A stretch of DNA of 64,000 nt, taken from an uncultured Bacteroidales bacterium (GTDB lineage: Bacteria; Bacteroidota; Bacteroidia; Bacteroidales; UBA932). The stretch lies in contig CALUPB010000009.1 of assembly GCA_944322585.1 (NCBI GenBank), positions 26,916 through 90,915 on the forward strand, written 5' to 3'. Positions 5,115 to 22,387 of this stretch are shown in pieces (position 1 is the stretch's first letter; every line of letters begins with the position of its first letter). The notes beneath the pieces are model-generated. The model had not been told where the DNA came from. It worked only from the letters and a program-made list of their open reading frames with translations, and ran no database searches. Made by a program: the position numbers and the translations under genes.

Positions 5115-5182
5115 GCAGGACATTCCTGCGGTGCGGTATTGTCATGACGGGAACAATGAAGATTATTAAAGGAAGACATATA

Positions 5183-7612: not shown

Positions 7613-7718
7613 AGGGCGGCCCCAAAGGATAATTCCTGTGTTACTTTCGGTTCGAAAATCCTCATGTACGACAGTACACTTCTCAATTCAGTCGGACTGA
7701 CATTAAAATATTTGCTCA

Positions 7719-9605
7719 ATGAATATAAAGGAAACATTTTTTATCTTGTCATCAATAGCGGTGCTGGCAACGGCCTGCCAGGAGCATGAGCCGGAGAACG
7801 GAATGGTGATGCCTGCACCTCAGAATATCGTATGTACCAATTCATCGGGGACTCTGACCTTTTCGTGGGATGAGGTCGAAGGCGCGGAACAGTATGCGGC
7901 AAGGCTTGTCACGGCTGATGATGACGGGCTTGTGGAACTGCAGTATGTGACCTCCGCCACGGTGACATTTTCGGAAGATCTGGAGTCCGGGGTGTCGTAT
8001 GTCTGCAAGGTGAGGGCGATGGCCGGGATGGAATATTCCGAGTTCGTGTCTTCGGAGCCTGTGGTTTTCCAGGGAGGGGAGACTCCTGACCCGGGGACCG
8101 ATCCTGAGCCTGTGGAAGGGGCATACGAGGCGATGATGATACCCGCACATGAGGACGAATATCTTGCGGATACGCCTCTTGCATTCCCGGGGGCCGAGGG
8201 CGGCGGAATGTATGTCACCGGAGGCCGCGGCGGAGAGGTGCTTCATGTCACGTCGCTCGCCGATGACGGCTCATCCGGAACTTTCCGCTGGGCAGTGGAG
8301 CAGTCCGGGCCGAGGATTATCGTTTTCGATGTTGCAGGACGGATTGACCTGCGGGAGGAACTCGTAATCCGCAACGGCGACCTTACCATAGCCGGACAGA
8401 CCGCTCCCGGCGACGGCATCTGTATAGCGAAAAATACAGTACGGGTCAATGCGGACAATATTATAATAAGGTTTATGCGCTTCCGTCTCGGGTATGACGG
8501 CTCGGAGTCCGACAGCGACGGTGAAGATACGATATGGGGACGATATCATGAAGACATTATCCTCGACCACTGTTCGATGTCATGGTCCGTTGACGAGGTG
8601 GCTTCTTTCTATGCCAACAGGAATTTCACCATGCAGTGGTGTCTGCTTGCTGAGGCCCTGCGCAATTCCGGGCATTCCAAGGGAGGGCACGGTTACGGAG
8701 GCATCTGGGGCGGACGTAATGCGTCGTTCCACCACAACTTTCTGGCCCACAATGACAGCCGCAATGCCCGTATCGACCATCCGGGCATCTATATCCAGGA
8801 GGACAGGGATTACCGTACCGACTATCGCGGAAATGTCGACTACCGCAACAATGTCATCTACAACTACGGCAGCAATTCCACCTATGGAGGAGAGGACGGA
8901 CATTTCAATATGGTAGGAAACTATTACAAGTCCGGACCCGCGACAACGACCAACGGCAACAAGATAAGGAAGTATTTCGTGGATGCGTACTGGTATAATG
9001 CGGACAGCGAGGTGGGTTCGGCATATCCGGAACTGTATATGGAGGACAACTACAATACCGACGGTATAGATGACAAGTATCCGAAAGGTATCTATTACCA
9101 TGACCAGAGTAAGTACGGGACCAATCCGGAAGGGGTTGTGCTTGAAGCGCCGCTCCCGATACGTGCCGATGATGCCACGCTGTGCCATGTCACTACCCAT
9201 CCGTCTTCGGTTGTCTTCGATCCTGTGGTCGGATATGCCGGTGCTTCCCTCGTGCGCGATGATGTGGATGTCAGGGTGGCAGACAATGCGGTCAAGGGCA
9301 ACTATTCCCATGAAGGCAGCAATGGCAGCACCGGAGGGCTTATCGACTCCCAGAATGATGTCGGAGGCTGGCCGGAATATTCTCAGGATACCGTCAACGA
9401 GGCCAATGACAAGACCGATGAAGACGGTGACAATATCCCGGACTGGTTCGAGGCTCTGTACGGACAGGACGGCAACCTGGAGCCTGACGCCAAGACCATC
9501 GACATCCACGGGCGCTATACCGACTTCGAGATGTATCTCCACTACCTCGTGCGCAACGTGGTCGCCGCCCAGTCCGCATCCGGGACCTATACCCCTCTCG
9601 ACTGA
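7719..9605 (+). CDS. Pectate lyase PL1-type lipoprotein with N-terminal Fn3 domain
   Basis: Lipoprotein of 628 residues with a type II signal ending LATAC (Cys20), so it is probably anchored in the outer membrane. A fibronectin type III domain (about 30-110) is joined by a Pro/Asp-rich linker to a PL1-type beta-helix starting near residue 148 (AFPGAEGGGMYVTGGRGGEV). The lyase blocks DHCSMSWSVDEVASFY, HGYGGIWGGRNASFHHN and NDSRNARIDHPG match those in the preceding fused lyase, so the two look like paralogues. The C-terminus carries an extra segment with EDGDNIPDWFEALYG, a common tail in this lyase group. The role would be endo-cleavage of de-esterified pectin at the cell surface. It lies 106 bases after the GH105-PL1 gene. 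Confidence 0.9.
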   Translation: MNIKETFFILSSIAVLATACQEHEPENGMVMPAPQNIVCTNSSGTLTFSWDEVEGAEQYAARLVTADDDGLVELQYVTSATVTFSEDLESGVSYVCKVRAMAGMEYSEFVSSEPVVFQGGETPDPGTDPEPVEGAYEAMMIPAHEDEYLADTPLAFPGAEGGGMYVTGGRGGEVLHVTSLADDGSSGTFRWAVEQSGPRIIVFDVAGRIDLREELVIRNGDLTIAGQTAPGDGICIAKNTVRVNADNIIIRFMRFRLGYDGSESDSDGEDTIWGRYHEDIILDHCSMSWSVDEVASFYANRNFTMQWCLLAEALRNSGHSKGGHGYGGIWGGRNASFHHNFLAHNDSRNARIDHPGIYIQEDRDYRTDYRGNVDYRNNVIYNYGSNSTYGGEDGHFNMVGNYYKSGPATTTNGNKIRKYFVDAYWYNADSEVGSAYPELYMEDNYNTDGIDDKYPKGIYYHDQSKYGTNPEGVVLEAPLPIRADDATLCHVTTHPSSVVFDPVVGYAGASLVRDDVDVRVADNAVKGNYSHEGSNGSTGGLIDSQNDVGGWPEYSQDTVNEANDKTDEDGDNIPDWFEALYGQDGNLEPDAKTIDIHGRYTDFEMYLHYLVRNVVAAQSASGTYTPLD

Positions 9606-9694
9606 TACGGCAGCACGTCAGAACATGCCTCGTTTTCTGTAAAAGTGGTACAAGTACCGGTGATGTGTATATGGCGCCATATTTCGTTCCGATG

Positions 9695-9702
9695 TATATT
9701 TG
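9695..9702 (+). promoter_or_regulatory. Bacteroidota -7 box (TATATTTG) before the CMD/cupin gene
   Basis: TATATTTG matches the -7 consensus TAnnTTTG of the Bacteroidota housekeeping sigma factor. It lies 17 bases before the ATG at 9720. I see no clear TTTG element about 20 bases upstream, so this is a partial match. Confidence 0.4.
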
Positions 9703-9719
9703 CAGAAAAATCATAGCGT

Positions 9720-10541
9720 ATGAAAAAGATTCTGTTTTTATTATCGATTGCAACAATGATTAATATCCAAGGAATTATGGCACAGGAAAAGATTACGCAG
9801 ACTGCCGGGCACGTGCAGTTGGGAGAATTTGCCCCGAAATTTGCCGAACTTAACGACGACGTGCTTTTCGGGGAGGTATGGAACAGTCCGGGACTCAGTC
9901 CTCATGACCGGAGCATGATAACCATAGCGACACTTGTCGGCAAGGGAATCATCGATTCGTCGCTGACACATCATCTCCAGTTCGCCAGACAGAACGGAGT
10001 AACCCGTACCGAAATATCGGAAATGTTGACGCACATCGCCTTTTACGCAGGTTGGCCGAATGCATGGGGCGCATTCCGGCTGGCGAAGGACGTGTGGGCC
10101 GACGACACGGCTGAAGCAGACGACAGGGCCGCTTTCCAGCGGGAGATGATATTCCCTGTCGGAGAGCCGAATACCGCATATGCCAGGTATTTTATCGGCA
10201 ACAGTTACCTGGCTCCGATATCCACGGAACAGATACCTTTCAATAATGTCACTTTCGAACCGGGGTGCCGCAACAACTGGCATATCCACCATGCCACTAA
10301 AGGTGGCGGACAGATGCTGGTCTGCGTGGCCGGCAAGGGCTGGTATCAGGAAGAAGGCAAGCCTGCCGTACAGATGCTTCCGGGCGATGTCATCCACATT
10401 CCCGCCAATGTGAAACACTGGCACGGTGCGGCAGCGGACAGCTGGTTTGCACATCTTGCCTTTGAAATACCGGGAGAAAACGCGTCCAACGAATGGCTGG
10501 AGCCTGTGACTGACGAAGAATACGGCAGACTCGGGAAATAG
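9720..10541 (+). CDS. Exported carboxymuconolactone decarboxylase-family / cupin protein
   Basis: Protein of 273 residues with a signal peptide (MKKILFLLSIATMINIQGIMAQ), so it is likely periplasmic. Residues about 30-125 form a carboxymuconolactone decarboxylase (AhpD-like) helical domain (SPHDRSMITIATLV, HHLQFARQNGVTRTEISEML). It lacks the CxxC pair of AhpD, so it is closer to the decarboxylase branch. Residues about 165-260 form a cupin barrel with metal-ligand histidines in NWHIHHATKGGGQML and HWHGAAADSW. Fused proteins of this kind are common in Bacteroidota but their reaction is mostly unknown. Its place at the end of the pectin gene run may be coincidental, or it may act on an oxidised sugar or aromatic released with pectin. 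A hairpin terminator follows. Confidence 0.85.
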   Translation: MKKILFLLSIATMINIQGIMAQEKITQTAGHVQLGEFAPKFAELNDDVLFGEVWNSPGLSPHDRSMITIATLVGKGIIDSSLTHHLQFARQNGVTRTEISEMLTHIAFYAGWPNAWGAFRLAKDVWADDTAEADDRAAFQREMIFPVGEPNTAYARYFIGNSYLAPISTEQIPFNNVTFEPGCRNNWHIHHATKGGGQMLVCVAGKGWYQEEGKPAVQMLPGDVIHIPANVKHWHGAAADSWFAHLAFEIPGENASNEWLEPVTDEEYGRLGK

Positions 10542-10884: not shown

Positions 10885-11038
10885 GTTTGTCTTTTAGGCA
10901 AGACAAAACTGAAAGACTATGGCAGAGGAGACATTTTCGGAGCCGCCCTTGTTACCCAAGAAGGAGTCGAACTTACCATCATCGCCCAAGGCTGGAAACA
11001 ACTATACCGCAGATTGAAAACAAACCATACGCTAACTC
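10885..11038 (+). pseudogene. Possible gene remnant before the STAND operon
   Basis: After a TAA at 10882-10884 the plus strand reads about 50 codons with protein-like composition (KLKDYGRGDIFGAALV, ELTIIAQGWKQLYRRLK), without an ATG and out of frame with the gene at 11039. The family is not recognised. The rest of the 10542-11038 gap shows the terminator at 10596 and AT-rich sequence near 10790-10830, and nothing else that I can name. It could be a relic of a gene displaced at the edge of the inserted module. Confidence 0.22.
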
Positions 11039-14000
11039 ATGACCGCCAACAATATAGACAACCGCCACATCAGGGTATTCATATCCTCCACATTCAATGA
11101 CATGCAGTCCGAGCGGGACGAACTCGTCTCCAAGATATTCCCGATACTGCGGAAAAAGGCTGCTGAAAGAAATGTCACAGTCACCGACATCGACCTCAGG
11201 TGGGGCATCACGGAGGAAGAATCCCGCAACGGAAAAGTGATAGACATCTGTCTGGACGAAATCGAAAAATCGCACCCGTTCTTCATCGGACTGCTTGGCA
11301 GCCGGTACGGCTGGACCCCTGCGGAAGACAAGGATGCGGACTATGGAACCGTCATAGAACCTCGGCACGGGTGGGCCACCGATGACATCAGGAACGGGCT
11401 CAGCATCACCGAGATGGAAATACGGTACGGTGCCCTGCGCAGCGACAGCCCGGTTTACGGCAGCTTTTTCCTGAAAGACTGCGATGAAAGCGGCATCGAC
11501 CCGAGACAGGCCAGGCTGAGACAGGAAATCCGGGAACAGGACCGGTATGAAGTGCACGTCTACGGCTCTATGGCTGAGTTCACGGAACAGGTCATCGGGA
11601 GCTTCGACAGACTGCTCGACACACTGTACCCTGAAGGAAGCGGCGACAGTCTCGAAAGCCGGCGCGCCCAACAGAGATACTATCTGCAGCAGAAGACCAT
11701 GTATTACATACCGGACAAGGCTGCGGACAAAAGGATAGAGGACTTCCTGCATGGCTCGCGGAGCAATCTTCTCGTCACCGGGACAAGCGGTATGGGCAAA
11801 TCCACCCTGCTGGCCTGGCACGCACTCAGACTCATGGAAGACGTGAATCAGGACGTAATAGCATTCTTTGCAGGGAACAGCGCTCACAATGCCACTTTCG
11901 CGGATGCCGCCCGGTGGGTCTGCCTGAATCTTTCAGACTTCCGCGGGATAGAATACGACGCTTCGGAAAATCCCTTGATACAGCTCGGGAGAATGGCCGG
12001 ACAGACAGCATCCGGCAAAAGGCTCGTCATAATAATCGACGGGATAAACCAGCTGTCAGACAGCGGAGGCAACGACAGGAATCTGGTATGGTGGCCGGAA
12101 TGGCCGGAAAATGTCAAGGTGATATTCTCGTCTCCGCAGAATGCGGAAATCATAAAGGAACTCGACCTTCGCGAATGGGAGCTTGCCAGCATCGGGAAAA
12201 TGACGATAGACGGCCGAATAGAGCTGGCCGGGAAATACTTCAGCCAGTACAGGAAAGAACTGTCCCGGGAACAGAAAGACCTGATAGGGAACGACTGGCC
12301 GCTGCTCGGTAATACTCTGATTTACGTCAGTTTCCTTGACGAACTCCGGCGTTTCGGCTCGTTCGGCGATCTGGACAGGTTCATTTTCTCTCTTGCCGGA
12401 TGCAGGGATTCAGATGAATTTTTCTCGAAACTGCTGGACCGGCAGGAAATCCTGTTCAAGGACAGCAAGGCAGACGGGCTTGTCCGGGATGTGATGACAT
12501 TGATCCATCTTTCAGAGTCCGGACTGACGGAAACACAGTTGCTTTCCATCACCGGGGCGTCCAGACTTTCGCTTTCACAGCTTCTCGGCATGAACGACAT
12601 GCACCTTGCAGTCAGAGGAGGCAGGGTGACGGAAGCGCATTCTATGTTCAGAAATGCCGTCTCGGCAAAATATCTCACCGACAAGGACTATGAGACGGCC
12701 CAAAGGAAAAGGCTCATAAGATACTTCGAAAACAACGGAGATGACCGGCAGGGACTGACAGAGCTCCCGTACCAATACGGCATGACGGAAGACTACGATT
12801 CACTTTACTGCTGCATCTGCAGGAAAGAGGTCCTTTCACACTTCACGGGAAGCGGCAGGAAGGACATTTTCGCTCGGTACTGGAGAAAGCTCACGGACAT
12901 CAATCCCCGACGGTACGACATCCTGGGCTGCGTGTATGACCTCATAAAAGACAGCAAGACGGAACTGACTGCCGGTCTGCGGTACATCTGGCTACCTATG
13001 TTCTCAAACGATGTCCTGCAACTGTCGAACATAGCCTCCGCCTACATGAAATCGCCGGAAACATCCCGGAGACTCGCGGAAGCGATGCTGAAAGTCCTTG
13101 AAAACGAGCAGGACGATGAATACGACATATTCAGACGTTCCGCTGCTGCCACTCTGGCTTCCGCCGAAAGTCTCAGCCACAACTGGAAGAATGCGCTCCT
13201 GCATTTCCGGCAGATACTCGAAGAAGGCGGGGAGGATATGGGCTCTGCGAAGGTCAGCAACATAGGGGAAATGTTTCTTTCGATGTACGAGGATATGAAG
13301 GACGAAAAATATCTGGAGTACGCTGAAAGCATCCTCAAAGCCGTCATGCAGACAAGGGAAAAACTTTATAAGGACAATCCTTGCACCGAACTTGCAACGG
13401 CTTATGCCAACTACGCTGCCGCACTTCACTACGGGTCTGTAGACAAAAGCACGGAATACAGCTTGAAAAGCATCGAGGTGTACAAGGCCATCGAAGGGGC
13501 GGACAGTCTCGATGCAGCCATAGAATACAGCAACCTGGCGATCGTATATGCCGGCATTCAGCCGCAGAAGGCCCGGGACTACGGAGAAGAGGCCTTGCGC
13601 ATATTCAGGGTGGTCGGAGGAGAGGAATCCGTACATACCGTGGAGACTCACCTGCTTTTAGGCAAGATCTGCATGAATCTCGGAGACTGGGAAAGTGCCT
13701 GCAGTCATTATGAGGCGGCATCCATAAGACCGGAGACGGCAGAGAATGCAGGGTTGGGGACTTACGGCGTATACGACCTCCTGTTCAAGGCCCAGTACTT
13801 CAGCGGAAGATACGAGGAAGCCGTCCGCACCATGGAAAAGACCATCGGCCTCGCCAGCAAAGACAGCCGGGAGAATATCCGCAGATGGGCCGATGCCGGG
13901 AAAGCGTACCTGAAACTCAAGGACTCCGCTTCCTGCCGCCGCTGCTATGAAAAGGCGATAAGTCTTTCGATGGAGTCGGGAGACCACGGTGCGGAACTGG

Positions 14001-15619
14001 AGAACCGTTACTATTATTCGATGGCACTCAACGACATGGGTGGTGCCGGAGAGTCGAACGAAATGCTTTCCCTCATCATCTCGAAAGCCGGAGAGTACGG
14101 TCTCGAAGAAAGCAAGGTCGTGGCATACGCGCTCTACAACAGGGCCATGTCCGGCATCCTTACCGGAGAAAAGCCTCAGGACGGTATCGCCGACATCGAG
14201 AGGGCGATAGCCATCCTTGAAAACCGGTACAGCGACGATGTCCGGCTGATCGAAGAGTACCGGAACGGGCTGGAGATGGCCTGTGCGAAGCTCAGCGGGG
14301 AGAGTCAGGAGAAAGCAGAGATTCCGGAGGCGGAAGAGATGAAGACTTACCTCGGAGAGGGTCTGGAGGAAATTTCTGAGATTTTCGCCTCGGGAATGCT
14401 CGATTTCAGGCAGCATCTGTACCCGTCTGCCGTATACAAGTTCGAAACCGTGCTGGAACGCATCGGGGACAGCGGAAACCTTTCTGCACAGGGTCTTGCA
14501 AAAAGGTATCTTGCCTTTGCCGAAGAACTGATTTTCCGCTCCGGTGAAGGACAGTACACTGCAGACGGCATCAGGGATACATACCTCGCCGCCGTAAATG
14601 ACGCTATGGCGGACAACAATATGGTTCTGGCCCGCGGGACAAGCCACGATTATGCCGAATTCTGCTGGCATCTCGGGGATTTCCATGCGGCGGAGAACGG
14701 CTACTGGGACGAGATTCTGTTCGGGTATTACGGTCAGGACTTCTATTCGTTCGAATCGGCCAGGGCATTCTACAATCTCGGCCCTGCCATCGAAAAACAG
14801 TATGATTCCGATTCTTCGGCCCCGCTGATGCTCGCGCTGTATTCTCTCAGCTATGCCGTCAACCTCAATTCCGGGACCGTATCCGAAGAGCTGAATGAGG
14901 GGCTGGAGCAAAGTATCGGATACTACGCCGAAGAAGCGGGAACAGAAGGGACGTATACCATAAAGCCTGGAGAGTCCGTAAAGGCAGTCCTCGCATATCT
15001 CGGCACATCGGACTACAGCCGCAAATACCTGATGACAATGGTATTGGCCTTCTGGATGGTCCGATATTACTCCGTTTCGGAGGCAAAAGACAAGGCGACG
15101 GAACTTGAATTCAGGTGCGAGTACGTGCGGGCTGCGATTTCCGAAGGACAGCTCCTCGCAGCCAAAGATACGATAGACAAAAGCCTCCCTCTGTTCGAAG
15201 AATACGGAGACCCCGGTCTGCTCGAAAGGATACGGTTACTTGCGTGCTGTTTCCACGTCCATGTACACGACACCGATGCTGCATACGAAGTCTGCCGGAA
15301 ATACGGTATCAGTGATGGTATAGTCATGCTTCTGGAGGAGTCGTGCTGTCCTTGCACCGGCGCATACAGGAAAGGCAGTACTGAAGATGCCGGGAAAGCT
15401 GCGGCGGAACTTATGGAAAAAGACGCGCAGGAGCTGACGGAAAGCGAATGCTACGATATGATCCTGTACAACGACCTCGTCGGCAACAGGTACGAAGCCC
15501 GGAAATATGCTGAAATCTGGAAAGGGAAATCACTCGAAAGCAGGCCGGACTACGCTGATCTTTTCCGTCCGGCATATGAAAGGATAGCCGGTATCATAAA
15601 TCTTCCGGAACAGGACTAA
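11039..15619 (+). CDS. STAND ATPase: DUF4062 - NACHT-type NTPase - TPR array
   Basis: A 1526-residue cytoplasmic protein. Residues 10-150 are a DUF4062 domain (IRVFISSTFNDMQSERDEL at 11-29, DLRWGITEE at 52-60, GLLGSRYGW at 84-92), the N-terminal domain also seen in NPHP3- and TEP1-like proteins. A NACHT-type P-loop NTPase follows, with Walker A GTSGMGKST (248-256, Lys254) and Walker B LVIIIDGINQL with Asp334. From about residue 700 to the end the chain is helical repeats of TPR type (for example YSNLAIVYAGIQPQKARDYGEEAL). This layout is that of STAND signal ATPases: the repeats sense, the NTPase oligomerises and the N-terminal domain signals. Bacterial relatives include antiphage Avs-type sensors, but DUF4062 has no settled activity. 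A second gene follows after 13 bases. No membrane segment. The start is the first ATG with the full domain; no Shine-Dalgarno is visible. Confidence 0.9.
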   Translation: MTANNIDNRHIRVFISSTFNDMQSERDELVSKIFPILRKKAAERNVTVTDIDLRWGITEEESRNGKVIDICLDEIEKSHPFFIGLLGSRYGWTPAEDKDADYGTVIEPRHGWATDDIRNGLSITEMEIRYGALRSDSPVYGSFFLKDCDESGIDPRQARLRQEIREQDRYEVHVYGSMAEFTEQVIGSFDRLLDTLYPEGSGDSLESRRAQQRYYLQQKTMYYIPDKAADKRIEDFLHGSRSNLLVTGTSGMGKSTLLAWHALRLMEDVNQDVIAFFAGNSAHNATFADAARWVCLNLSDFRGIEYDASENPLIQLGRMAGQTASGKRLVIIIDGINQLSDSGGNDRNLVWWPEWPENVKVIFSSPQNAEIIKELDLREWELASIGKMTIDGRIELAGKYFSQYRKELSREQKDLIGNDWPLLGNTLIYVSFLDELRRFGSFGDLDRFIFSLAGCRDSDEFFSKLLDRQEILFKDSKADGLVRDVMTLIHLSESGLTETQLLSITGASRLSLSQLLGMNDMHLAVRGGRVTEAHSMFRNAVSAKYLTDKDYETAQRKRLIRYFENNGDDRQGLTELPYQYGMTEDYDSLYCCICRKEVLSHFTGSGRKDIFARYWRKLTDINPRRYDILGCVYDLIKDSKTELTAGLRYIWLPMFSNDVLQLSNIASAYMKSPETSRRLAEAMLKVLENEQDDEYDIFRRSAAATLASAESLSHNWKNALLHFRQILEEGGEDMGSAKVSNIGEMFLSMYEDMKDEKYLEYAESILKAVMQTREKLYKDNPCTELATAYANYAAALHYGSVDKSTEYSLKSIEVYKAIEGADSLDAAIEYSNLAIVYAGIQPQKARDYGEEALRIFRVVGGEESVHTVETHLLLGKICMNLGDWESACSHYEAASIRPETAENAGLGTYGVYDLLFKAQYFSGRYEEAVRTMEKTIGLASKDSRENIRRWADAGKAYLKLKDSASCRRCYEKAISLSMESGDHGAELENRYYYSMALNDMGGAGESNEMLSLIISKAGEYGLEESKVVAYALYNRAMSGILTGEKPQDGIADIERAIAILENRYSDDVRLIEEYRNGLEMACAKLSGESQEKAEIPEAEEMKTYLGEGLEEISEIFASGMLDFRQHLYPSAVYKFETVLERIGDSGNLSAQGLAKRYLAFAEELIFRSGEGQYTADGIRDTYLAAVNDAMADNNMVLARGTSHDYAEFCWHLGDFHAAENGYWDEILFGYYGQDFYSFESARAFYNLGPAIEKQYDSDSSAPLMLALYSLSYAVNLNSGTVSEELNEGLEQSIGYYAEEAGTEGTYTIKPGESVKAVLAYLGTSDYSRKYLMTMVLAFWMVRYYSVSEAKDKATELEFRCEYVRAAISEGQLLAAKDTIDKSLPLFEEYGDPGLLERIRLLACCFHVHVHDTDAAYEVCRKYGISDGIVMLLEESCCPCTGAYRKGSTEDAGKAAAELMEKDAQELTESECYDMILYNDLVGNRYEARKYAEIWKGKSLESRPDYADLFRPAYERIAGIINLPEQD

Positions 15620-15632
15620 AATTGCAGGAACC

Positions 15633-16298
15633 ATGAAAACAGCAGATGTAAAAGATATGATCAACGAAACGCTCGCCTCGGCGGCACTGCCGGAAGATGC
15701 GGAGATAAAGGAACTTCTTGCCCGGATGGACGCGGCAAACGGAGACGAGCGGGAAAGCGCGAAGGTTGCAGAGGAAATCGCCGGGCTGCTCAAACGTATC
15801 GGCACGGTTCCATTGAACCTCGACAGCAACCAGGATCTGCTTCTTGCCCACACGATTCTGGTGAAGTCGCTGAACGACAACGATACGGCACTCCTGAAAT
15901 ACGCCCTGATAGCCATGCACAACCGTTTCATGCTCGGGGACATGCTGGAACAGGGTTTTGCCGCCGAGGCGCTGATGAAGATCTTCATTCACGGCAAGGA
16001 ACATGTCATGAAACTTCTGGCGGAGTTTGCGGGGACAGCTGCGGAAGATTCTTTCTACGGTCGTTTTTTAGACAGGGAAGACATGGAGTCTGCCGACGGA
16101 AGCCGGCTATATGCGGAGCTCATGAGGGCTGTGCTTCCCTCCCTGCACTGGCTCGTGCAGACATACCCGGACTATCCCTGCTTCATGACGCCGGAAGAGA
16201 TTGATAATTTTCAGGATACGGTCTGCAGCGGTAAAGGCGGCAAGGATGCTCTGCCGAAATTTTCAGCCTTCTGCAGGATGCTGTACGCAGTCATATAG
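15633..16298 (+). CDS. Small helical protein, partner of the STAND ATPase, unknown family
   Basis: A 221-residue soluble protein starting 13 bases after the STAND gene, so almost certainly co-transcribed. It is predicted from composition to be all-helical and acidic (EDAEIKELLARMDAANGDERE), without signal peptide, membrane segment or visible catalytic motif. I do not recognise a family. The tight pairing suggests an accessory or regulator of the STAND protein. Its C-terminus (SAFCRMLYAVI) runs into the palindromic repeat between the two convergent operons. Confidence 0.75.
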   Translation: MKTADVKDMINETLASAALPEDAEIKELLARMDAANGDERESAKVAEEIAGLLKRIGTVPLNLDSNQDLLLAHTILVKSLNDNDTALLKYALIAMHNRFMLGDMLEQGFAAEALMKIFIHGKEHVMKLLAEFAGTAAEDSFYGRFLDREDMESADGSRLYAELMRAVLPSLHWLVQTYPDYPCFMTPEEIDNFQDTVCSGKGGKDALPKFSAFCRMLYAVI

Positions 16299-16312
16299 GC
16301 TTTTTCGCCCCC

Positions 16313-16424
16313 TGTCATTTCGCGCTTAGTCGAGAGATCTGCCCATATTATCATCCACGGACTTCCCCGACTACGCTCGGGATGACAAAGTGAGAATCAG
16401 TCCTCGACCACACTCTGGATGACA
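16313..16424. repeat. REP-like palindromic repeat between convergent operons
   Basis: Three copies of one repeat unit. Two lie on the minus strand at 16364-16387 and 16401-16424; they match each other at 20 of 24 positions and read TGTCATCCcGAGcGTaGTCG and onward. A third, inverted and more diverged, lies on the plus strand at 16313-16337. The outer pair can form a large hairpin that could end transcription from both sides. Such TCATCCxGAGCG-type repeats are common between genes in many bacteria. The copy at 16401-16424 lies inside the 3' end of the channel gene and encodes its last nine residues. Confidence 0.7.
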
Positions 16425-18397
16425 TTGGTCGGGATGACAATAGTGAAGCCGGCAATGGCCATCAGGTAGGGCAGGTTGACTATCACCTGCCTGTCCTTGA
16501 ATTTCTCGCTCTCCGCCAACTCATGGTAAGGGACTATCAGAGGATGGATACGGTGCACATCGTCTCTTGTCTTCCCGTATTTCCAGCCTTCGATGGAACG
16601 CTCGGCATTCCACCGGTATTTCTCCATCCGCATCAGGACCGACAGCCGGGCATTGTCCAGAGCCTTGCGGAAGTCCTCCGGTGAGACAGCCTTCCCCGCC
16701 GCGTGCGATGAGCGCATTACCCTGTATCCCAGCGTGTTCAGATATGTCATGTAAGCGTCTACCTGATATCTGTTGGCCCAACGCATGTTCTCCTCCATCT
16801 CCATCCAGCTGCCTGCGGCTTCCGCCTTCCCTTTTGCGAACGCGGAGACATCGCCCGCCTTCATGTAGCCGTACATTTCACGGATAAATCCTTCCCGGAC
16901 ATACTCCTGATTCACATATGACGGGAGTTCGTCCAGGAGCATGGACTTCGAAATGCCCTGCTCCAGCATGCCGAACACCTTGACATTCCTGTAACGCCCC
17001 TTGTCATTGTGTATTATCCTTCCCATATCTGTCTGCATCTCCTGCCTGATGAGTACCCTCGCTTCGCTCCGGTATATCTCGCCCGGAAGATTCAGACCGA
17101 GGATGATGCTCTCGTCCGGGTCACTTATGCAGACTGCCACCGTAAGCATCTGCCGGGAATCGGCGGCCCATTGCACCAGACTTTCCCGGACCGGTGAACT
17201 GCACAGATCTTCGTTACGGTAATCCACCCGTATGTCATCTATTGCATCAATATACGGGAACTGTGCCATGAAATGCTGTTTCAGCGGCTCCACATCCCTG
17301 TCTATCACGGTTATCTCCGTCCTTATGCGTGACCCGCTTTCCGCAGCATCGTCATAATTGGCATAATGGCACACTCTCATGGCTTCCAAAAGCAGGGCCT
17401 GTCCCATGGCACCGAAGCCGGCGATGACCAGATGCACATGCCTGTCATTGCCTTGCAATCCACCGTCAGGAGAAAGCCGTATCGGGTCATAGTCCACAGA
17501 ATCATACAGCCTGTCTTCATCTTCTTCCACGGTGTAGTGAGTCCACAGACGGCGTGCCCAGTTCTCATACAGGTTGAAAGGCCTGAAATAGATTCCCTTC
17601 AACTCCGCCCGTTCCTTGTCGGACAGCGCCAGTTTCTGGATCACGCTGTAGGACCCTATCCGCTCCGACAGGGTGTAGACGGGGAGTTTGTGACCTGCAG
17701 CCGCCGGGCCTTTCAGTCTGCCGACACTGCGTACGCACTGTATGTTTTTCGAATCCCTTCCATAATCCCCCTCCTCACCGAGGATATACACTTCCTTCGC
17801 CTTGTCTATGTTCAGGCGCCGGAGTTCCTCCATGGACTCTATGTTGCCGAAATAAATGTACACCTGCCGCTCCTCTTCCCTGTCCAGACTTGCCTGCAGA
17901 CCGTGGCGCACCTTCTCGCTCTCACGGCTGCTCATGACGACTACAGGCGCTTCCGGGTCGATCCTGTGCAACTCCCTTATGAGACTGACGATGATATCCC
18001 CGCAGCCGATTATCACATAATGGCCGCTTATCGACTTATAGTACGCCTTGCCCGTACGCACGGTCTCGACGCGGCGTTCGATGATGTTCGATATGGTGGA
18101 TATGAGGACTCCTCCAAGCAGGACGGAACCCAGCAGACTGACAATGCTTACAACCAGCCTGTTGCCCCAGCTTTCCTGGGCAAGCTGGTTCCCGGGGTCC
18201 ACGAAATTGTTGTACAGCACCCACATCTGTTCGGCCCATCCGCCGTTCTCGCTCAAGGCGATACCCGAGAATGTCACGACTATAAAGGCAAAGAGAAGTA
18301 CCCCGGAAATCACCGCCACGAGCAGTGTAAGTTGCCCCTTGAGTCCGCCGGAAATGGTCCGGTCTATGAATTCCTGAGAAAGGATCTTCCGTTTCAT
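16397..18397 (-). CDS. CASTOR/POLLUX-like ion channel with two RCK domains and C-terminal RyR domain
   Basis: A 666-residue inner-membrane protein. There are two strong membrane helices (about 20-42 and 84-107) with a pore-type segment between them (WVLYNNFVDPGNQL; the DPG motif is typical of the CASTOR/POLLUX channel family). A first RCK/TrkA-N Rossmann domain (about 125-290, YVIIGCGDIIVSLIREL) and a second (about 320-480, HLVIAGFGAMGQALLLEAM) follow. The C-terminal 590-650 region is a RyR domain (EGWKYGKTRDDVHRIHPLIV), a fold found in ryanodine receptors and in predicted prokaryotic immune systems, where it is proposed to bind nucleotide-type ligands. The likely role is a ligand-gated ion channel that depolarises the cell. 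The start ATG overlaps the stop of the upstream RyR gene (ATGA). The last nine residues (NVIQSVVED) come from a REP-like repeat. Confidence 0.87.
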   Translation of the reverse strand: MKRKILSQEFIDRTISGGLKGQLTLLVAVISGVLLFAFIVVTFSGIALSENGGWAEQMWVLYNNFVDPGNQLAQESWGNRLVVSIVSLLGSVLLGGVLISTISNIIERRVETVRTGKAYYKSISGHYVIIGCGDIIVSLIRELHRIDPEAPVVVMSSRESEKVRHGLQASLDREEERQVYIYFGNIESMEELRRLNIDKAKEVYILGEEGDYGRDSKNIQCVRSVGRLKGPAAAGHKLPVYTLSERIGSYSVIQKLALSDKERAELKGIYFRPFNLYENWARRLWTHYTVEEDEDRLYDSVDYDPIRLSPDGGLQGNDRHVHLVIAGFGAMGQALLLEAMRVCHYANYDDAAESGSRIRTEITVIDRDVEPLKQHFMAQFPYIDAIDDIRVDYRNEDLCSSPVRESLVQWAADSRQMLTVAVCISDPDESIILGLNLPGEIYRSEARVLIRQEMQTDMGRIIHNDKGRYRNVKVFGMLEQGISKSMLLDELPSYVNQEYVREGFIREMYGYMKAGDVSAFAKGKAEAAGSWMEMEENMRWANRYQVDAYMTYLNTLGYRVMRSSHAAGKAVSPEDFRKALDNARLSVLMRMEKYRWNAERSIEGWKYGKTRDDVHRIHPLIVPYHELAESEKFKDRQVIVNLPYLMAIAGFTIVIPTNVIQSVVED

Positions 18398-18693
18398 CGG
18401 TCAGACTTTTTTATTGAGTATCCTGATTTGAGGATGAATCTGAGGGTCTGGATGGCCGTTTTTCTGTCATACTCCTTCTCCGATTCAGGCAATTGGTCAT
18501 ACGGCACGAGACAAGGATGGTGTTTCAGCTTATCGTCACGTTTTTCTCCCCACACCCAGCCTTCCGCCATGCGGGCAGCTGCCCATACTTCATGTACATT
18601 TTCCGCCATACGCTCCGAAAGCGCCATGATATCCTCCGGCAACTCCACGTCATCGGCAAAAACCGGGGATGGTTTGTAGGCATTGTTCTTCAT
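18394..18693 (-). CDS. Stand-alone RyR-domain protein
   Basis: A 99-residue soluble protein that is almost only a RyR domain: Trp37, GWVWG at 45-49, DD at 53-54, HHPCLVPYDQL at 58-68, EKEYDR at 72-77. I place the start at the ATG at 18693; upstream in-frame ATGs would add 65 residues of unrelated, low-likelihood sequence. The stop overlaps the channel start by four bases, giving translational coupling, so the two RyR proteins are made together. It could act as a soluble ligand sensor or as a regulatory subunit for the channel's own RyR domain. Function is inferred from the domain and context only. Confidence 0.82.
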   Translation of the reverse strand: MKNNAYKPSPVFADDVELPEDIMALSERMAENVHEVWAAARMAEGWVWGEKRDDKLKHHPCLVPYDQLPESEKEYDRKTAIQTLRFILKSGYSIKKSDR

Positions 18694-19157
18694 ATCTGGA
18701 ATTTTCCACAAGATACGCTTTTTCCCGCTTATGATCAACACCCGGAGCCGGAATCCGACTCTCCGATTGCCATACTCACTTTGCCGGGGGCTTACGATAT
18801 TTTCCGCATGAAAAGAATAGGATTGAATGTCATAAACAGTAATTGCTGACAGAAACCGATACTGTCGGGGAACGGCACAGGCGGGCATACTGGGGATATT
18901 GCGGGCGTGCGGCTAAAAGTACAAGCATTGCGATAATTTTTGACATCGATATAGCAGTCAATGTTCTAATTTCGCATATCCGAAATAGGGGACAGTCCGG
19001 AGGAAACCGGCTCTCCACTTCCGGGTAAGGCGACAATTGATAACACTAAGAAGTTGTTTTGAATTTTTGCGATATAAATTATCGCCGAAAAGGCAAATAA
19101 AAGAATCTTTGGAAAAATTCAAGACAGTTTCTGATATTTTAACCAAAAAGTTCTTAT
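18694..19157. other. Divergent intergenic region between the RyR operon and susC
   Basis: A 464-base stretch without a gene I can support. It must hold the promoters for the minus-strand RyR/channel operon and the plus-strand susC operon. The part next to susC (19050-19157) is AT-rich. AATTTTTG at 19062-19069 is a weak match to a -7 box. It also marks the right border of the module that divides the pectin locus. No repeat or integrase site was seen. Confidence 0.5.
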
Positions 19158-22100
19158 ATGAAGAATCTGATGTACAGGATTTCTCTCTTGTCCGCTGGAT
19201 TGTTTGCGTCCATGGCTATCGCCGGCGCCCAGCAGATCAAGGGTGTTGTCTCTGATGCGAACGGTGATCCCCTTGTGGGCGTATCCGTTTTCGTGGACGG
19301 CACCACAATAGGAGTATCGACGGATGTTGACGGGAAGTATTCCATCGACATTCCTGATGCCAAGGGCAAGACCCTTGTATTCTCATGTATAGGTATGGCC
19401 ACCAAGGAAATTCTTATCGGCCAGAACACTACCGTCAATATCACCCTCGAAGAGGACACCAATTTCCTCGACGAGACGGTCGTCATCGGTTACGCTACTG
19501 TCAAGCGCCGGGATTTGCTGGGCTCCGTGACTTCCGTGGGAGCGGATGCCATTGCGGCCGTGCCGGTGACTACGGTCGGGGAGGCCCTAACGGGCAAGAT
19601 GGCCGGTGTCCAGGTGACCACTACCGAGGGAGACCCCGATGCGGAGATAAAGATCCGTGTCAGGGGGACAGGTTCCATCACCCAGGACAGCTCTCCTCTG
19701 TTTATAGTGGACGGTTTCCCTGTGGACAACATTTCCGACATTGCGGCTTCCGATATACAGTCCATAGATGTCCTCAAGGATGCCTTCTCTACGGCTATCT
19801 ACGGTTCCCGCGGAGCCAACGGAGTCGTGCTCGTGACCACGAAGTCAGGGGGGGCAGGCAAGATTTCCGTCAGCTACGATGCCTACTACGGACTCAAGAA
19901 AATGGCCAACAAGGACGCCATCCAGGCGATGTCTCCGTACGAATTCGTCCGTTCACAGTATGAACTGGCCATGTTGAGGGATACCCCGGACGAGAACTAT
20001 ACGGCAGTATTCGGACCTTTCGAGGATATGGATCTGTACAGGAATGTCCAGGGTAATGACTGGATAAACCAGGTCTTCGGACGTACCGGGGAGACATTCA
20101 ACCATAATCTTACTGTCTCCGGCCGTTCGGACAAGGTGACCTGGACCGCCAGCTACAACCATATCAACGACAAGGCCATCATGCTCGGATCCGACTACCA
20201 CAGGGACAACCTCCGGTTCAAGACCCGCTACAAGCCTATAAAGCAGCTGACCTTCGACCTGAATGTCCGCTATTCCTACACCAAGATCATGGGGGCAGGA
20301 GCCAATTCGATGAACGACAGCGGTTCCACATCCGGTAACGGACGTCTCAAACATGCCGTTCAGTATACTCCGATACCTCTCAATGTATCGGCTGCCGGAG
20401 ATGATGTGGACGAGAGCTACGGCGACAACGCCCCTCCTGTACAGTCGGTATGGGACAATGACAACAAGCGTGTGCGCCAGAGCTGGAACGCCAATGCTGC
20501 AGTTACATGGCATATCATCGACAACCTCGACCTCAAGGTGGAAGGCGGACTCGAGACCTACAGCCAGGTCAACAACCGTTTCTACGGAATCACTACCTAT
20601 TATGTAGGCCAGACGGCCGAGTCCGACTACAGGGACATGCCGGCTGCAATGTACACCGACCTCGACCGCAAGCGCATACGCAACACCAACACCCTCACAT
20701 ACAATTTCGGGGAAGTCATAAAGGATGACCGCCACAAGGTTGACCTGCTCGTCGGTGAGGAGATGATCATAACCAAGGAAAACCAGTTCTCCACCACGGT
20801 GGAAGGATTTCCGGTGCAGTTCAACTCGGAGCAGGCATGGAGCATGATGACTATAGGACATACCAGGACTTCGAACAACCTCTACTACCCGGACGACCGT
20901 CTGCTCTCTTTCTTCGGACGTGTCAACTACGACTATGACGGCAGGTATTCGATAGCCGCCACATTCCGCGCCGACGGTTCGTCAAGGTTCGCGCAGGGAC
21001 ATCAGTGGGGTTTCTTCCCGTCGGCCGCCGCTTCCTGGACCATTTCCAACGAGAAATGGATGCAGGGTGCCTCCCGCTGGCTTGACAACCTCAAACTGCG
21101 CTACAGTTTCGGTACCGCGGGCAACAACAATATCCCGCAGAATGTCACCGACCTCATGTACGAGGCATACAGTACGGGAGACCGCCTTTCCAACGGTACG
21201 GTCATCTTCCGTCCTGTCACTGACGGTGGCGACACCATCCTTGCCAACAACGACCTTTCATGGGAGACCACCTGGTCACATAATATAGGTATAGACTTCT
21301 CGTTCTGGAAAAGCCGGTTCAACGGTTCCATCGAACTTTACCACAACACCACCAGGGATCTGCTTATCCAGTATCCGACGGCAGGTTCCGGATATGAGGG
21401 TCAGTACAGGAACCTCGGTTCCGTGATGAACCGGGGAGCGGAGTTCTCGTTCAATGTAGTTCTTGTGGAGAAGAAGAATTTCGGTCTCATGTTCAGCGGC
21501 AATATCAGTATCAACGAGAACCGTGTCCTCAGTCTCGGAGGCATGGACAGCATCGTCCAGTCTTCCGGATGGACTTCCACAGGTGTCGGTTCCGACTATA
21601 AGGTAGAAGTGGGACAGCCTCTCGGAAACATGTACGGCTATCAGGTGGAGGGGATATATACCACCGGTGATTTTACCTATGACAACGGCTGGCAGCGCAA
21701 TGAAGGCGTAGCCAATGCCTACTCGCTTCTCGGTACCGAAGGCTTCCGTCCGGGAGGAATGAAGATAAGGAACAGCAACGGTGACGATGTCATCGATGAC
21801 AAGGACAAGACTGTCATAGGCAATGCCCTGCCGCTCGGGACGGGTGGTTTCAGCCTTTCCGGCAACCTGTACGGCTTCGATTTCGCCGCCAATTTCAACT
21901 ATGTATTCGGCAACGATGTCTATAACGCCAACAAGGTCGAGTTCTCTTCCACAGCCGGGTATTACAGACGTAACCTGCTCAATACCATGGAGACGGGCAA
22001 GAGGTGGACCAATATCGACTGGAGCACCGGCGAACTCATTACCGATGCCGCCACTCTCGATGCCATGAACGAGGGCGTCACCCAGTGGGCTCCGTTCACA

Positions 22101-22382
22101 TCCAGCAGGGTATTCACCGACTGGGCTGTAGAGGACGGCTCTTTCCTCAGGCTGCAGTCAGCCACCATCGGCTACACCCTGCCACAGAAACTGACCCTGA
22201 AGGCCAAGATACAGAGGCTCCGTTTCTATGTGACCGGGACGAATCTCTTCTGTCTTACGGCCTATTCCGGCTATGACCCTGAAGTGGATACCCGCCGTGC
22301 AACACCTCTTACCCCTGGTGTGGACTATTCCGCCTACCCTAAGAGCATCGGCTTCGTGGCCGGAGTCAACATCACATTCTGA
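19158..22382 (+). CDS. SusC-family TonB-dependent outer-membrane transporter
   Basis: A 1074-residue outer-membrane barrel. A signal peptide (about 1-25, ending AGAQQ) is followed by a carboxypeptidase-D-like domain (about 27-105, IKGVVSDANGDPLVGVSVFV), the family signature near DETVVIGYATVKRRDLLGSV, a plug domain (about 120-235, IRVRGTGSI, SPLFIVDGFPV, YGSRGANGVVLVTTKSG) and a long barrel ending in a C-terminal Phe (VAGVNITF), as needed for barrel insertion. It imports oligosaccharides held by the SusD partner encoded 5 bases downstream, with energy from TonB. The cargo is expected to be a pectin oligomer because of the flanking lyases. Length and domain order are normal for the family. Confidence 0.97.
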   Translation: MKNLMYRISLLSAGLFASMAIAGAQQIKGVVSDANGDPLVGVSVFVDGTTIGVSTDVDGKYSIDIPDAKGKTLVFSCIGMATKEILIGQNTTVNITLEEDTNFLDETVVIGYATVKRRDLLGSVTSVGADAIAAVPVTTVGEALTGKMAGVQVTTTEGDPDAEIKIRVRGTGSITQDSSPLFIVDGFPVDNISDIAASDIQSIDVLKDAFSTAIYGSRGANGVVLVTTKSGGAGKISVSYDAYYGLKKMANKDAIQAMSPYEFVRSQYELAMLRDTPDENYTAVFGPFEDMDLYRNVQGNDWINQVFGRTGETFNHNLTVSGRSDKVTWTASYNHINDKAIMLGSDYHRDNLRFKTRYKPIKQLTFDLNVRYSYTKIMGAGANSMNDSGSTSGNGRLKHAVQYTPIPLNVSAAGDDVDESYGDNAPPVQSVWDNDNKRVRQSWNANAAVTWHIIDNLDLKVEGGLETYSQVNNRFYGITTYYVGQTAESDYRDMPAAMYTDLDRKRIRNTNTLTYNFGEVIKDDRHKVDLLVGEEMIITKENQFSTTVEGFPVQFNSEQAWSMMTIGHTRTSNNLYYPDDRLLSFFGRVNYDYDGRYSIAATFRADGSSRFAQGHQWGFFPSAAASWTISNEKWMQGASRWLDNLKLRYSFGTAGNNNIPQNVTDLMYEAYSTGDRLSNGTVIFRPVTDGGDTILANNDLSWETTWSHNIGIDFSFWKSRFNGSIELYHNTTRDLLIQYPTAGSGYEGQYRNLGSVMNRGAEFSFNVVLVEKKNFGLMFSGNISINENRVLSLGGMDSIVQSSGWTSTGVGSDYKVEVGQPLGNMYGYQVEGIYTTGDFTYDNGWQRNEGVANAYSLLGTEGFRPGGMKIRNSNGDDVIDDKDKTVIGNALPLGTGGFSLSGNLYGFDFAANFNYVFGNDVYNANKVEFSSTAGYYRRNLLNTMETGKRWTNIDWSTGELITDAATLDAMNEGVTQWAPFTSSRVFTDWAVEDGSFLRLQSATIGYTLPQKLTLKAKIQRLRFYVTGTNLFCLTAYSGYDPEVDTRRATPLTPGVDYSAYPKSIGFVAGVNITF

Positions 22383-22387
22383 CCGGC

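What the first reader, a model, noticed from the sequence alone, without database searches (positions are those of the whole stretch)
11039..18693. Candidate conflict system: DUF4062-NACHT-TPR STAND operon facing an RCK-RyR channel plus RyR operon
Seen: four genes in two convergent, tightly packed operons. One encodes a 1526-residue DUF4062-NACHT-TPR protein and a small helical partner; the other encodes a RyR-domain protein translationally coupled to a CASTOR/POLLUX-like channel that also carries a RyR domain. Known: NACHT/STAND ATPases with repeat arrays are common antiphage sensors; RyR domains have been predicted to act in prokaryotic immunity as ligand readers; membrane channels are frequent abortive-infection effectors. 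Inference: the STAND protein senses infection and leads to a small-molecule or ion signal that RyR domains read, opening the channel and depolarising the cell. I do not know of a described system with this exact four-gene content.
Basis: partly seen in the sequence, partly recalled or inferred. Interest (0 to 1): 0.88.

Follow-up and report, generated by a model that had tools for sequence, protein, structure and literature searches.

The report
Mobile NADase and RyR-channel defence cassette
A gut-type bacterium carries a four-gene block that looks like an infection alarm: one large protein probably turns NAD into a small signal, and an ion channel with a ryanodine-receptor-like domain probably reads that signal and opens, which would kill or stall the infected cell.

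Summary
The four genes are real and as described. They form one unit: a second Bacteroidales genome carries the same four genes in the same arrangement, 74-84% identical and under purifying selection, with unrelated flanks. RyR domains were recently shown to bind or cleave cyclic ADP-ribose immune signals (PMC13232231). The small RyR protein keeps all four ligand residues; the channel keeps three, with K for H. RyR-type RCK channels lie within 10 kb of a TIR or DUF4062 gene in 19 of 46 loci (0.77 expected), against 0 of 18 RyR-less relatives; 16 of the 19 are co-directional runs. Best reading: a STAND sensor makes an ADP-ribose-type signal, RyR domains read it, the channel opens. Thoeris-like logic, different parts. 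Cassette unity is strongly supported; ligand, gating and phage defence are inferred. The key TIR survey preprint could not be read, so priority is uncertain.

The parts
11039..15619 (+). STAND sensor/enzyme: DUF4062 (TIR-like NADase family; predicted catalytic E127) - NACHT-type P-loop (K254, D334) - TPR array, 1526 aa
   Evidence: ORF; Pfam; PDB chain 11gz_A (Telomerase protein component 1, TEP1) matched at E 3.4e-25; TE.E motif in 17 of 18 aligned DUF4062-STAND proteins, the 18th row being cut short; Walker residues; ortholog 79.6% identical in L131, dN/dS 0.18
15633..16298 (+). Small all-helical accessory protein, 221 aa, 13 nt downstream of the STAND gene; function unknown
   Evidence: ORF; no Pfam or PADLOC hit; low-confidence helical model, no fold match at E 0.001; ortholog 73.8% identical in L131; in 299 family genomes found only in its own
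16397..18397 (-). RCK ion channel with C-terminal RyR domain, 666 aa: TM1 about 19-43, pore helix 54-66, filter region FVDPGNQ, TM2 about 77-95, tandem RCK-like folds, RyR match 595-653
   Evidence: Pfam; AlphaFold2 pLDDT 89, pTM 0.86; Foldseek best matches GsuK, CASTOR, Slo1; ligand-residue columns K593/W596/H618/D635; ortholog 79.9% identical in L131
18394..18693 (-). Stand-alone RyR-domain protein, 99 aa, ATGA overlap with the channel gene; all four RyDEP-type ligand residues kept with the same spacing
   Evidence: Pfam (116.4 bits); alignment A2; residue counts; overlap; ortholog 83.5% identical in L131
10886..10941 (+). About 56 bp matching the end of a weakly AIRS-like gene that sits next to the STAND gene in L131; probably a scar carried along with the block
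   Evidence: blastn (85.7% over 56 bp, E 2.5e-10); Pfam of the L131 gene (AIRS, E 0.0012, 19.7 bits, below cut-off 24)
10937..18695 (.). Extent of the block homologous to L131 (79.3% over 7866 alignment columns); flanks on both sides are not homologous
   Evidence: for the L131 gene map

Best explanation
A mobile two-arm signalling cassette of the antiviral type. (1) Inferred: the TPR array of the STAND protein senses infection or another insult, and its NACHT ATPase oligomerises. (2) Inferred from family and residues: this clusters the N-terminal DUF4062 domains, which are TIR-like NADases, and they convert NAD+ to ADP-ribose or a close (possibly cyclic) derivative. (3) Inferred from RyR biochemistry and residue conservation: the two RyR domains bind this nucleotide. 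The channel's own RyR domain (K in place of the histidine that is catalytic in the phage enzyme) acts as the receptor; the stand-alone RyR protein is a co-receptor or a signal buffer/hydrolase. (4) Inferred from the fold: the RCK gating ring opens the 2-TM pore and ions run down, stopping growth of the cell. Shown here: the genes, their residues, conservation of the block as a unit, and genomic linkage of RyR channels to TIR-type genes.
For: Same four genes, same arrangement, unrelated flanks in a second genome. DUF4062 matches TEP1 chain 11gz_A at E 3.4e-25. Counting that chain by eye with an offset of 893, which also puts arginines at the published R908, R954 and R976, TEP1 catalytic E1008 aligns with window E127; that Glu is kept in 17 of 18 aligned proteins, the 18th row being cut short. 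Small RyR: H/W/H/D in 14 of 14, spacing +3/+25/+42 as in RyDEP H75/W78/H100/D117. Channel: W/H/D in 38 of 38 aligned, first position H in 32 and K in 6 (residues from PMC13232231). TIR or DUF4062 within 10 kb of 19 of 46 RyR-type channels against 0.77 expected, and 0 of 18 RyR-less CASTOR-like channels. The RyR end motif is visible in 43 of the 46 (the other three ORFs are truncated; one of them, G227, is among the 19) and in 0 of the 18. 16 of the 19 are co-directional runs with gaps of at most 300 nt. Island control: adenine methylases (PF02384) lie within 10 kb of 0 of 46 channels and C5 methylases (PF00145) of 2 of 46, read by eye. Named RyR loci: TIR or DUF4062 within 10 kb in 35 of the 80 kept, about 0.74 expected for TIR. 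Channel fold: GsuK/CASTOR/Slo1 class.
Against: Published DUF4062 enzymes were reported to hydrolyse NAD+ to ADP-ribose, TEP1 made no further derivative, and Swarozyc acts by NAD+ depletion (PMC13174449), so signalling by DUF4062 is unproven. 27 of 46 channel loci have no TIR or DUF4062 within 10 kb in these data (some contigs are short). In the window K593 replaces the residue that contacts ribose in RyDEP. TEP1 R908 and R954 are not Arg here (N20, K66). Two of 46 channels are near C5 methylases, one of them with a restriction gene (G022), so some general defence clustering exists. The window is not in a defence island. No PADLOC model fits the four proteins well. No phenotype data.
Confidence: 0.6

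Rival explanations
1. The STAND protein kills by NAD+ depletion alone (Swarozyc-like), and the RCK channel responds to the fall in NAD+ or the rise in ADP/ADPR through its RCK domains, as GsuK binds NAD and ADP. The RyR domains tune or reset it.
For: DUF4062 is shown to deplete NAD+ (PMC13174449). The closest channel structures are GsuK, solved with ADP and with NAD. The small RyR keeps the H/D pair that makes RyDEP a glycosidase, so it could destroy signal or product.
Against: It does not by itself explain why channels that carry RyR, and not RyR-less CASTOR-like channels, sit beside TIR/DUF4062 (19 of 46 against 0 of 18).
Confidence: 0.2
2. Two independent defence modules that sit side by side: a self-sufficient DUF4062 STAND and a RyR channel system that answers to other, unlinked TIR enzymes.
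For: 27 of 46 channels have no TIR/DUF4062 within 10 kb. The window gene pairs are convergent, not one operon. G029, G061, G223 and G245 carry both gene types on different contigs of draft assemblies.
Against: Block conservation with different flanks in L131; overlap of DUF4062-STAND and channel genes in L055 and L056, and a STAND-RyR-channel run in L048. The window's own genome has no TIR_2 match.
Confidence: 0.12
3. An ordinary cation or osmolarity channel with no immune role; the STAND gene next to it is incidental.
For: CASTOR/GsuK-class channels are generally thought of as ion-handling channels (general knowledge). The window lies among carbohydrate-use genes.
Against: Patchy distribution (29 of 299 family genomes matched, 3 of these only through RyR), conservation as a block, and strong linkage to TIR-type genes.
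Confidence: 0.06

Closest known systems
Thoeris (TIR enzyme makes a cyclic ADP-ribose-type signal that activates a separate effector)
   Same: Logic: a TIR-type enzyme plus a separate effector with a nucleotide-reading domain. Channel relatives in other genomes sit beside TIR proteins; L113 has a ThsB_TIR hit over the cut-off and L037 one below it, and 8 of 10 channel-linked TIR proteins scanned match a ThsB model in PADLOC at E 0.001.
   Different: Here the enzyme is DUF4062 fused to NACHT-TPR, and the effector is an RCK ion channel with a RyR domain. No ThsB, SLOG or SIR2 match among the four proteins.
Swarozyc (DUF4062 NADase, PMC13174449)
   Same: DUF4062 domain with the catalytic glutamate.
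   Different: Swarozyc is one gene with a portal-binding winged-helix domain and depletes NAD+. Here there is a NACHT-TPR sensor and a separate RyR channel arm. RyR, ryanodine and channel do not occur in that paper's main text.
RyDEP phage RyR-domain proteins (PMC13232231)
   Same: Same R12 RyR domain family, and the same four residues with the same spacing in the small RyR protein.
   Different: RyDEPs are phage counter-defence enzymes or sponges. Here RyR is on the bacterial side, coupled to and fused with a channel. The paper notes a B. thetaiotaomicron RyR-like structure but describes no bacterial RyR function in the parts read (1-2 of 6, and passages).
GsuK, CASTOR/POLLUX and Slo (RCK-gated cation channels)
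   Same: 2-TM pore plus tandem RCK-like folds in the predicted model.
   Different: C-terminal RyR domain added; filter region reads DPGN; relatives linked to TIR-type genes.
Animal ryanodine receptors and TEP1/NPHP3-type DUF4062-NACHT proteins
   Same: RyR R12 domain on a cation channel; DUF4062-NACHT-repeat architecture.
   Different: Different pore family and bacterial two-arm arrangement; an evolutionary link is only suggested.

Membership tests
Thoeris | Separate ThsB-type TIR protein that makes a cADPR-type signal | tested here: not met
   No TIR_2 match in the window's genome (G000, 93.5% complete: 0 matches at E 0.001); the enzyme domain is DUF4062
Thoeris | ThsA-type effector with a SLOG or macro sensor (definition recalled) | tested here: not met
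   Channel and small protein hit RyR and RCK-type families; no ThsA model in PADLOC at E 0.1
Thoeris | Effector activated by a NAD-derived nucleotide | not testable with these tools
   Needs biochemistry; residue pattern is consistent
Swarozyc / DUF4062 NADase | DUF4062 fold with catalytic Glu | tested here: met
   54.5 bits; E127 aligned with TEP1 E1008 through chain 11gz_A, kept in 17 of 18 rows, the 18th cut short
Swarozyc / DUF4062 NADase | Portal-binding winged-helix auxiliary domain, single gene | tested here: not met
   The rest of the protein matches NACHT/AAA and TPR families
Swarozyc / DUF4062 NADase | NAD+ hydrolysis | not testable with these tools
   No enzyme assay possible
STAND/NACHT NTPase | Walker A and B in a NACHT-type domain followed by repeats | tested here: met
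   K254 and D334; NACHT 23.5 bits, below cut-off 26.7; TPR_12 50.3 bits
RyR R12 domain (PF02026) | Profile match and ligand residues H/W/H/D | tested here: met
   Small protein 116.4 bits, H/W/H/D in 14 of 14 aligned
RyR R12 domain (PF02026) | Same four residues in the channel's C-terminal domain | tested here: inconclusive
   40.4 bits over profile positions 31-89; W/H/D kept, first position is K in the window and 5 relatives, H in 32 of 38
RCK-gated cation channel | Two TM helices with pore loop and RCK domains | tested here: met
   Model pLDDT 89; best structural matches GsuK and CASTOR; hydropathy peaks 23-41 and 81-99
RCK-gated cation channel | Ion conductance and selectivity | not testable with these tools
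   Needs electrophysiology
Known anti-phage system (PADLOC, 2023 version) | Match to a described system's models | tested here: not met
   Only weak partial hits, the best at E 7.5e-5 to a TPR model

The most novel reading that the evidence does not exclude
Bacteria possess RyR-gated ion channels that are opened directly by ADP-ribose-type immune nucleotides made by TIR or TIR-like (DUF4062) enzymes. In this cassette the enzyme is built into a NACHT-TPR sensor like animal TEP1/NPHP3, so both halves of the disputed animal link between cyclic ADP-ribose and ryanodine receptors would have a bacterial antiviral counterpart.
Probability: 0.45. Interest if true: 0.92.

Novelty: new variant of a known kind. 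Interest (0 to 1): 0.8.

Why it matters
If true, it gives TIR-type immunity an ion-channel effector and assigns bacterial RyR domains a function as receptors of NAD-derived immune signals. It would explain why phages carry RyR-domain sponges and hydrolases. It would also give a small, tractable system for asking whether RyR domains gate channels in response to ADP-ribose nucleotides, a question long open for animal ryanodine receptors (general knowledge). The generality is testable: RyR genes near TIR or DUF4062 genes were seen in records titled Bacteroidales, Clostridia-type and planctomycete.

Tried and rejected
Rejected: a fixed four-gene system. The helical partner was found in 1 of 299 family genomes, its own, and not in the nine further stretches around DUF4062-STAND genes or the other neighbourhoods searched; it is a local accessory.

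Rejected: passive defence-island clustering as the whole explanation. PF02384 and PF00145 methylases are near 0 and 2 of 46 channels (read by eye from the listed coordinates).

Rejected: a plasmid home for the channel (no hit in the plasmid collection at E 1e-10).

Led nowhere: structural identity of the helical partner; promoter/terminator scan near chance level.

Rows dropped before counts. Of the channel matches, G052, G271 and G113 (RyR part only) and G498 and G536 (uncertain class; no TIR_2 or DUF4062 match in either genome) are in neither the 46 nor the 18. In three of the 46 (G273, G227, G659) the channel ORF is truncated and its RyR end is not seen; without them the count is 18 of 43. 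In one search I left out TIR rows below the family cut-off (one of these, in G607 about 6 kb from its channel, would have added a positive), one TIR row with internal stops (G006), repeat domains of the same gene, DUF4062 rows of G318 and G505 (below cut-off) and a 29-residue row of G540. Coordinates were copied by hand. Expected values assume uniform placement and use rounded genome sizes. Relatedness between genomes is not corrected for, so the P values are indicative only. I take the 299 genomes to be the same draw (same group, number and handles). The TIR profile is home-made; two of its hits were checked with Pfam and both matched TIR_2. The gene maps come from a simple longest-ORF caller. 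The 80 named RyR loci are the ones most like the window's RyR protein out of a capped scan, not a random sample.

Papers: PMC13174449 and PMC13232231, parts 1-2 of 6 of each main text plus found passages; PMC8195603 and PMC13142454, found passages only; all others, search listings only. The Burroughs/Aravind 2015 survey (DOI recalled) and Yirmiya 2025 are not held and were not read.
Full report
What is there. The window is Bacteroidales-type DNA: it has SusC/SusD genes. The contigs G075:C73 and G029:C29 of two same-family genomes have the same lengths as named Bacteroidales contigs, one of them from Candidatus Coprenecus, so the family is probably that of Coprenecus (inference). The four genes are confirmed. 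A 1526-residue DUF4062-NACHT-TPR protein is followed after 13 nt by a 221-residue helical protein. Convergent to them, a 99-residue RyR protein overlaps by ATGA a 666-residue channel with RCK and RyR domains. The NACHT match is just below Pfam's cut-off, but the Walker residues are in place.

One unit. One of the 80, L131 from an uncultured Bacteroidales bacterium, carries all four genes in the same order and orientation. DNA similarity is continuous over window 10937-18695 (79.3% over 7866 columns), plus about 56 bp at 10886-10941. No other window protein of at least 100 residues matches L131 at E 1e-6. The L131 flanks are different genes, for example a sulfate permease. Amino-acid identity is 79.6% (STAND), 73.8% (helical), 79.9% (channel) and 83.5% (RyR); dN/dS is 0.18, 0.19, 0.13 and 0.09. 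The block is thus kept as a unit in two different surroundings, which I read as mobility. The 56-bp piece matches the end of a weakly AIRS-like gene next to the STAND gene in L131 and looks like a scar of that move (inference).

The enzyme arm. DUF4062 was recently shown to be a TIR-like NADase family; the bacterial single-gene system is called Swarozyc, and human TEP1 is an active member (PMC13174449, parts 1-2 of 6 read). The window protein matches PDB chain 11gz_A, named Telomerase protein component 1 (TEP1), at E 3.4e-25. Numbering that chain by eye with an offset of 893 puts arginines at R908, R954 and R976 and a glutamate at E1008, as the paper names them. E1008 then aligns with window E127. 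The TE.E motif is present in 17 of 18 aligned DUF4062-STAND proteins; the 18th row was cut short by my coordinates. R976 is conserved (R89); R954 is K66 and R908 is N20 here.

[quoted passage not shown] The small RyR protein here has H, W, H, D at the same spacing, as do 14 of 14 aligned sequences, itself included. In the channel's RyR domain W, H and D are invariant in 38 of 38; the first position is H in 32 and K in 6, including the window. K at the catalytic position suggests a binder rather than an enzyme (inference). The channel model has pLDDT 89 and pTM 0.86. Its best structural matches are GsuK (solved with ADP and with NAD), CASTOR and Slo1. The helical partner could not be assigned.

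Linkage elsewhere. In the family, 29 of 299 genomes matched the channel query; 26 are channels and 3 matched only through RyR. In the order, 41 of 393 genomes matched the channel profile: 22 with high scores, 17 with weaker matches to the front part only, and 2 (G498, G536) that I left unclassified. The 17 hold 18 loci, and none of their 18 channel ORFs shows a RyR match or the EH.RW end motif; of the 46 high-scoring channel loci 43 show the motif, and the other three are truncated ORFs. Over the 46, a TIR_2 gene lies within 10 kb in 13 and a DUF4062 gene in 6, together 19, against 0.77 expected. None of the 18 RyR-less channel loci has one. Sixteen of the 19 are co-directional runs with gaps of at most 300 nt: STAND-RyR-channel in L048, STAND overlapping channel in L055 and L056, channel-RyR-TIR in L037 and L113, channel overlapping a TIR gene in L041 (with a SIR2-like domain) and L046. 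The exceptions are the window itself, L034 and L109. As a test of general defence-island clustering, adenine methylases (PF02384) are within 10 kb of 0 of 46 channels and C5 methylases (PF00145) of 2 of 46, G022 and G217, read by eye; G022 also has an EcoRII-type gene there.

Genome-level association. Of 299 family genomes, 10 have a DUF4062 open frame of at least 1000 residues, and 9 of these carry the channel, against 17 of the other 289. Shorter DUF4062 proteins show no such link: 2 of 33 genomes. Relatedness was not corrected for; the nine span three genera.

Beyond the order. Among the 80 named RyR loci, many on short contigs, the channel is found in 21, TIR in 30 and DUF4062 in 5; TIR or DUF4062 lies within 10 kb in 35, about 0.74 expected for TIR from the rate in the channel-carrying genomes. 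The DUF4062 cases include two records titled planctomycete or Thermoguttaceae (L150, L153). A second membrane-protein family, with an EH.RW-like motif towards its C-terminal part, occurs in 23 of the 80; of five members scanned with Pfam, one passed the RyR cut-off, one fell below it and three had no RyR match. Twenty-two of 80 have none of these neighbours.

How it most likely works. On infection the STAND protein oligomerises, its DUF4062 domains turn NAD+ into ADPR or a derivative, RyR domains bind this, and the RCK channel opens. The trigger, the ligand and the gating are inferred; the parts, residues and linkage are shown. A serious alternative is NAD+ depletion by the STAND arm with the channel sensing NAD/ADP through its RCK domains, and with the small RyR protein as an off-switch. 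Evidence against signalling is that published DUF4062 enzymes were reported to make ADPR and to act by depletion. Evidence for it is that RyR-less channels lack the linkage.

Novelty. Ten searches of the library for RyR with DUF4062, Thoeris, TrkA, channel, NADase and related terms (two of them, 11 and 42, returned no paper) showed, at the level of listings and the passages I opened, no description of a DUF4062 or TIR system with a RyR ion channel. The DUF4062 paper's main text contains neither RyR nor channel. [quoted passage not shown] The part least likely to be covered there is the DUF4062-STAND branch (my guess). I file this as a new variant of a known kind: Thoeris-like logic, but failing the Thoeris and Swarozyc membership features that could be tested.

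Noticed in passing
L132-L204 set (for example L165:1170-3371, L149:7836-9935, L199:8037-9974): A second family of membrane proteins (mostly 600-930 aa; the member examined has three N-terminal hydrophobic peaks) with an EH.RW-like motif occurs in 23 of 80 RyR loci, 14 of them Clostridia-type by record title.
   Followed up: partly
L112:2422-4893: An 824-aa protein with three TIR repeats lies 168 nt downstream of a RyR channel gene.
   Followed up: no
L148:4045-7557: A double-AAA plus M41 peptidase protein of 1171 aa; its blast cluster (median 1171 aa) occurs in 6 of the 80 RyR loci, only this member scanned with Pfam.
   Followed up: no
L163:5494-9969 and L186:5922-9998: Large proteins with a protein-kinase domain, one with a weak Card1-like nuclease match, lie directly upstream of RyR genes.
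   Followed up: no
phage records MT836850.1 and MT837259.1: Two unannotated faecal phage-labelled records encode RyR proteins 51-54% identical to the small RyR protein; 247 of 50,697 phage records have a RyR match at E 0.001.
   Followed up: no
L103:7049-8881 and L105:7045-8859: MutS-like proteins of about 600 aa lie directly beside RyR-channel pairs in two genomes of one genus.
   Followed up: no
window 16299-16396: The 98-nt gap between the two operons holds a sequence resembling Bacteroidetes intergenic repeats (recalled resemblance, not tested; sequence seen).
   Followed up: no
window 792-10541 and 19158-24325: Flanking genes are a hybrid two-component regulator, GH88 with a beta-helix, an fn3 protein, a CMD-cupin protein and SusC/SusD genes, i.e. 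a carbohydrate-use region in which the cassette sits.
   Followed up: partly
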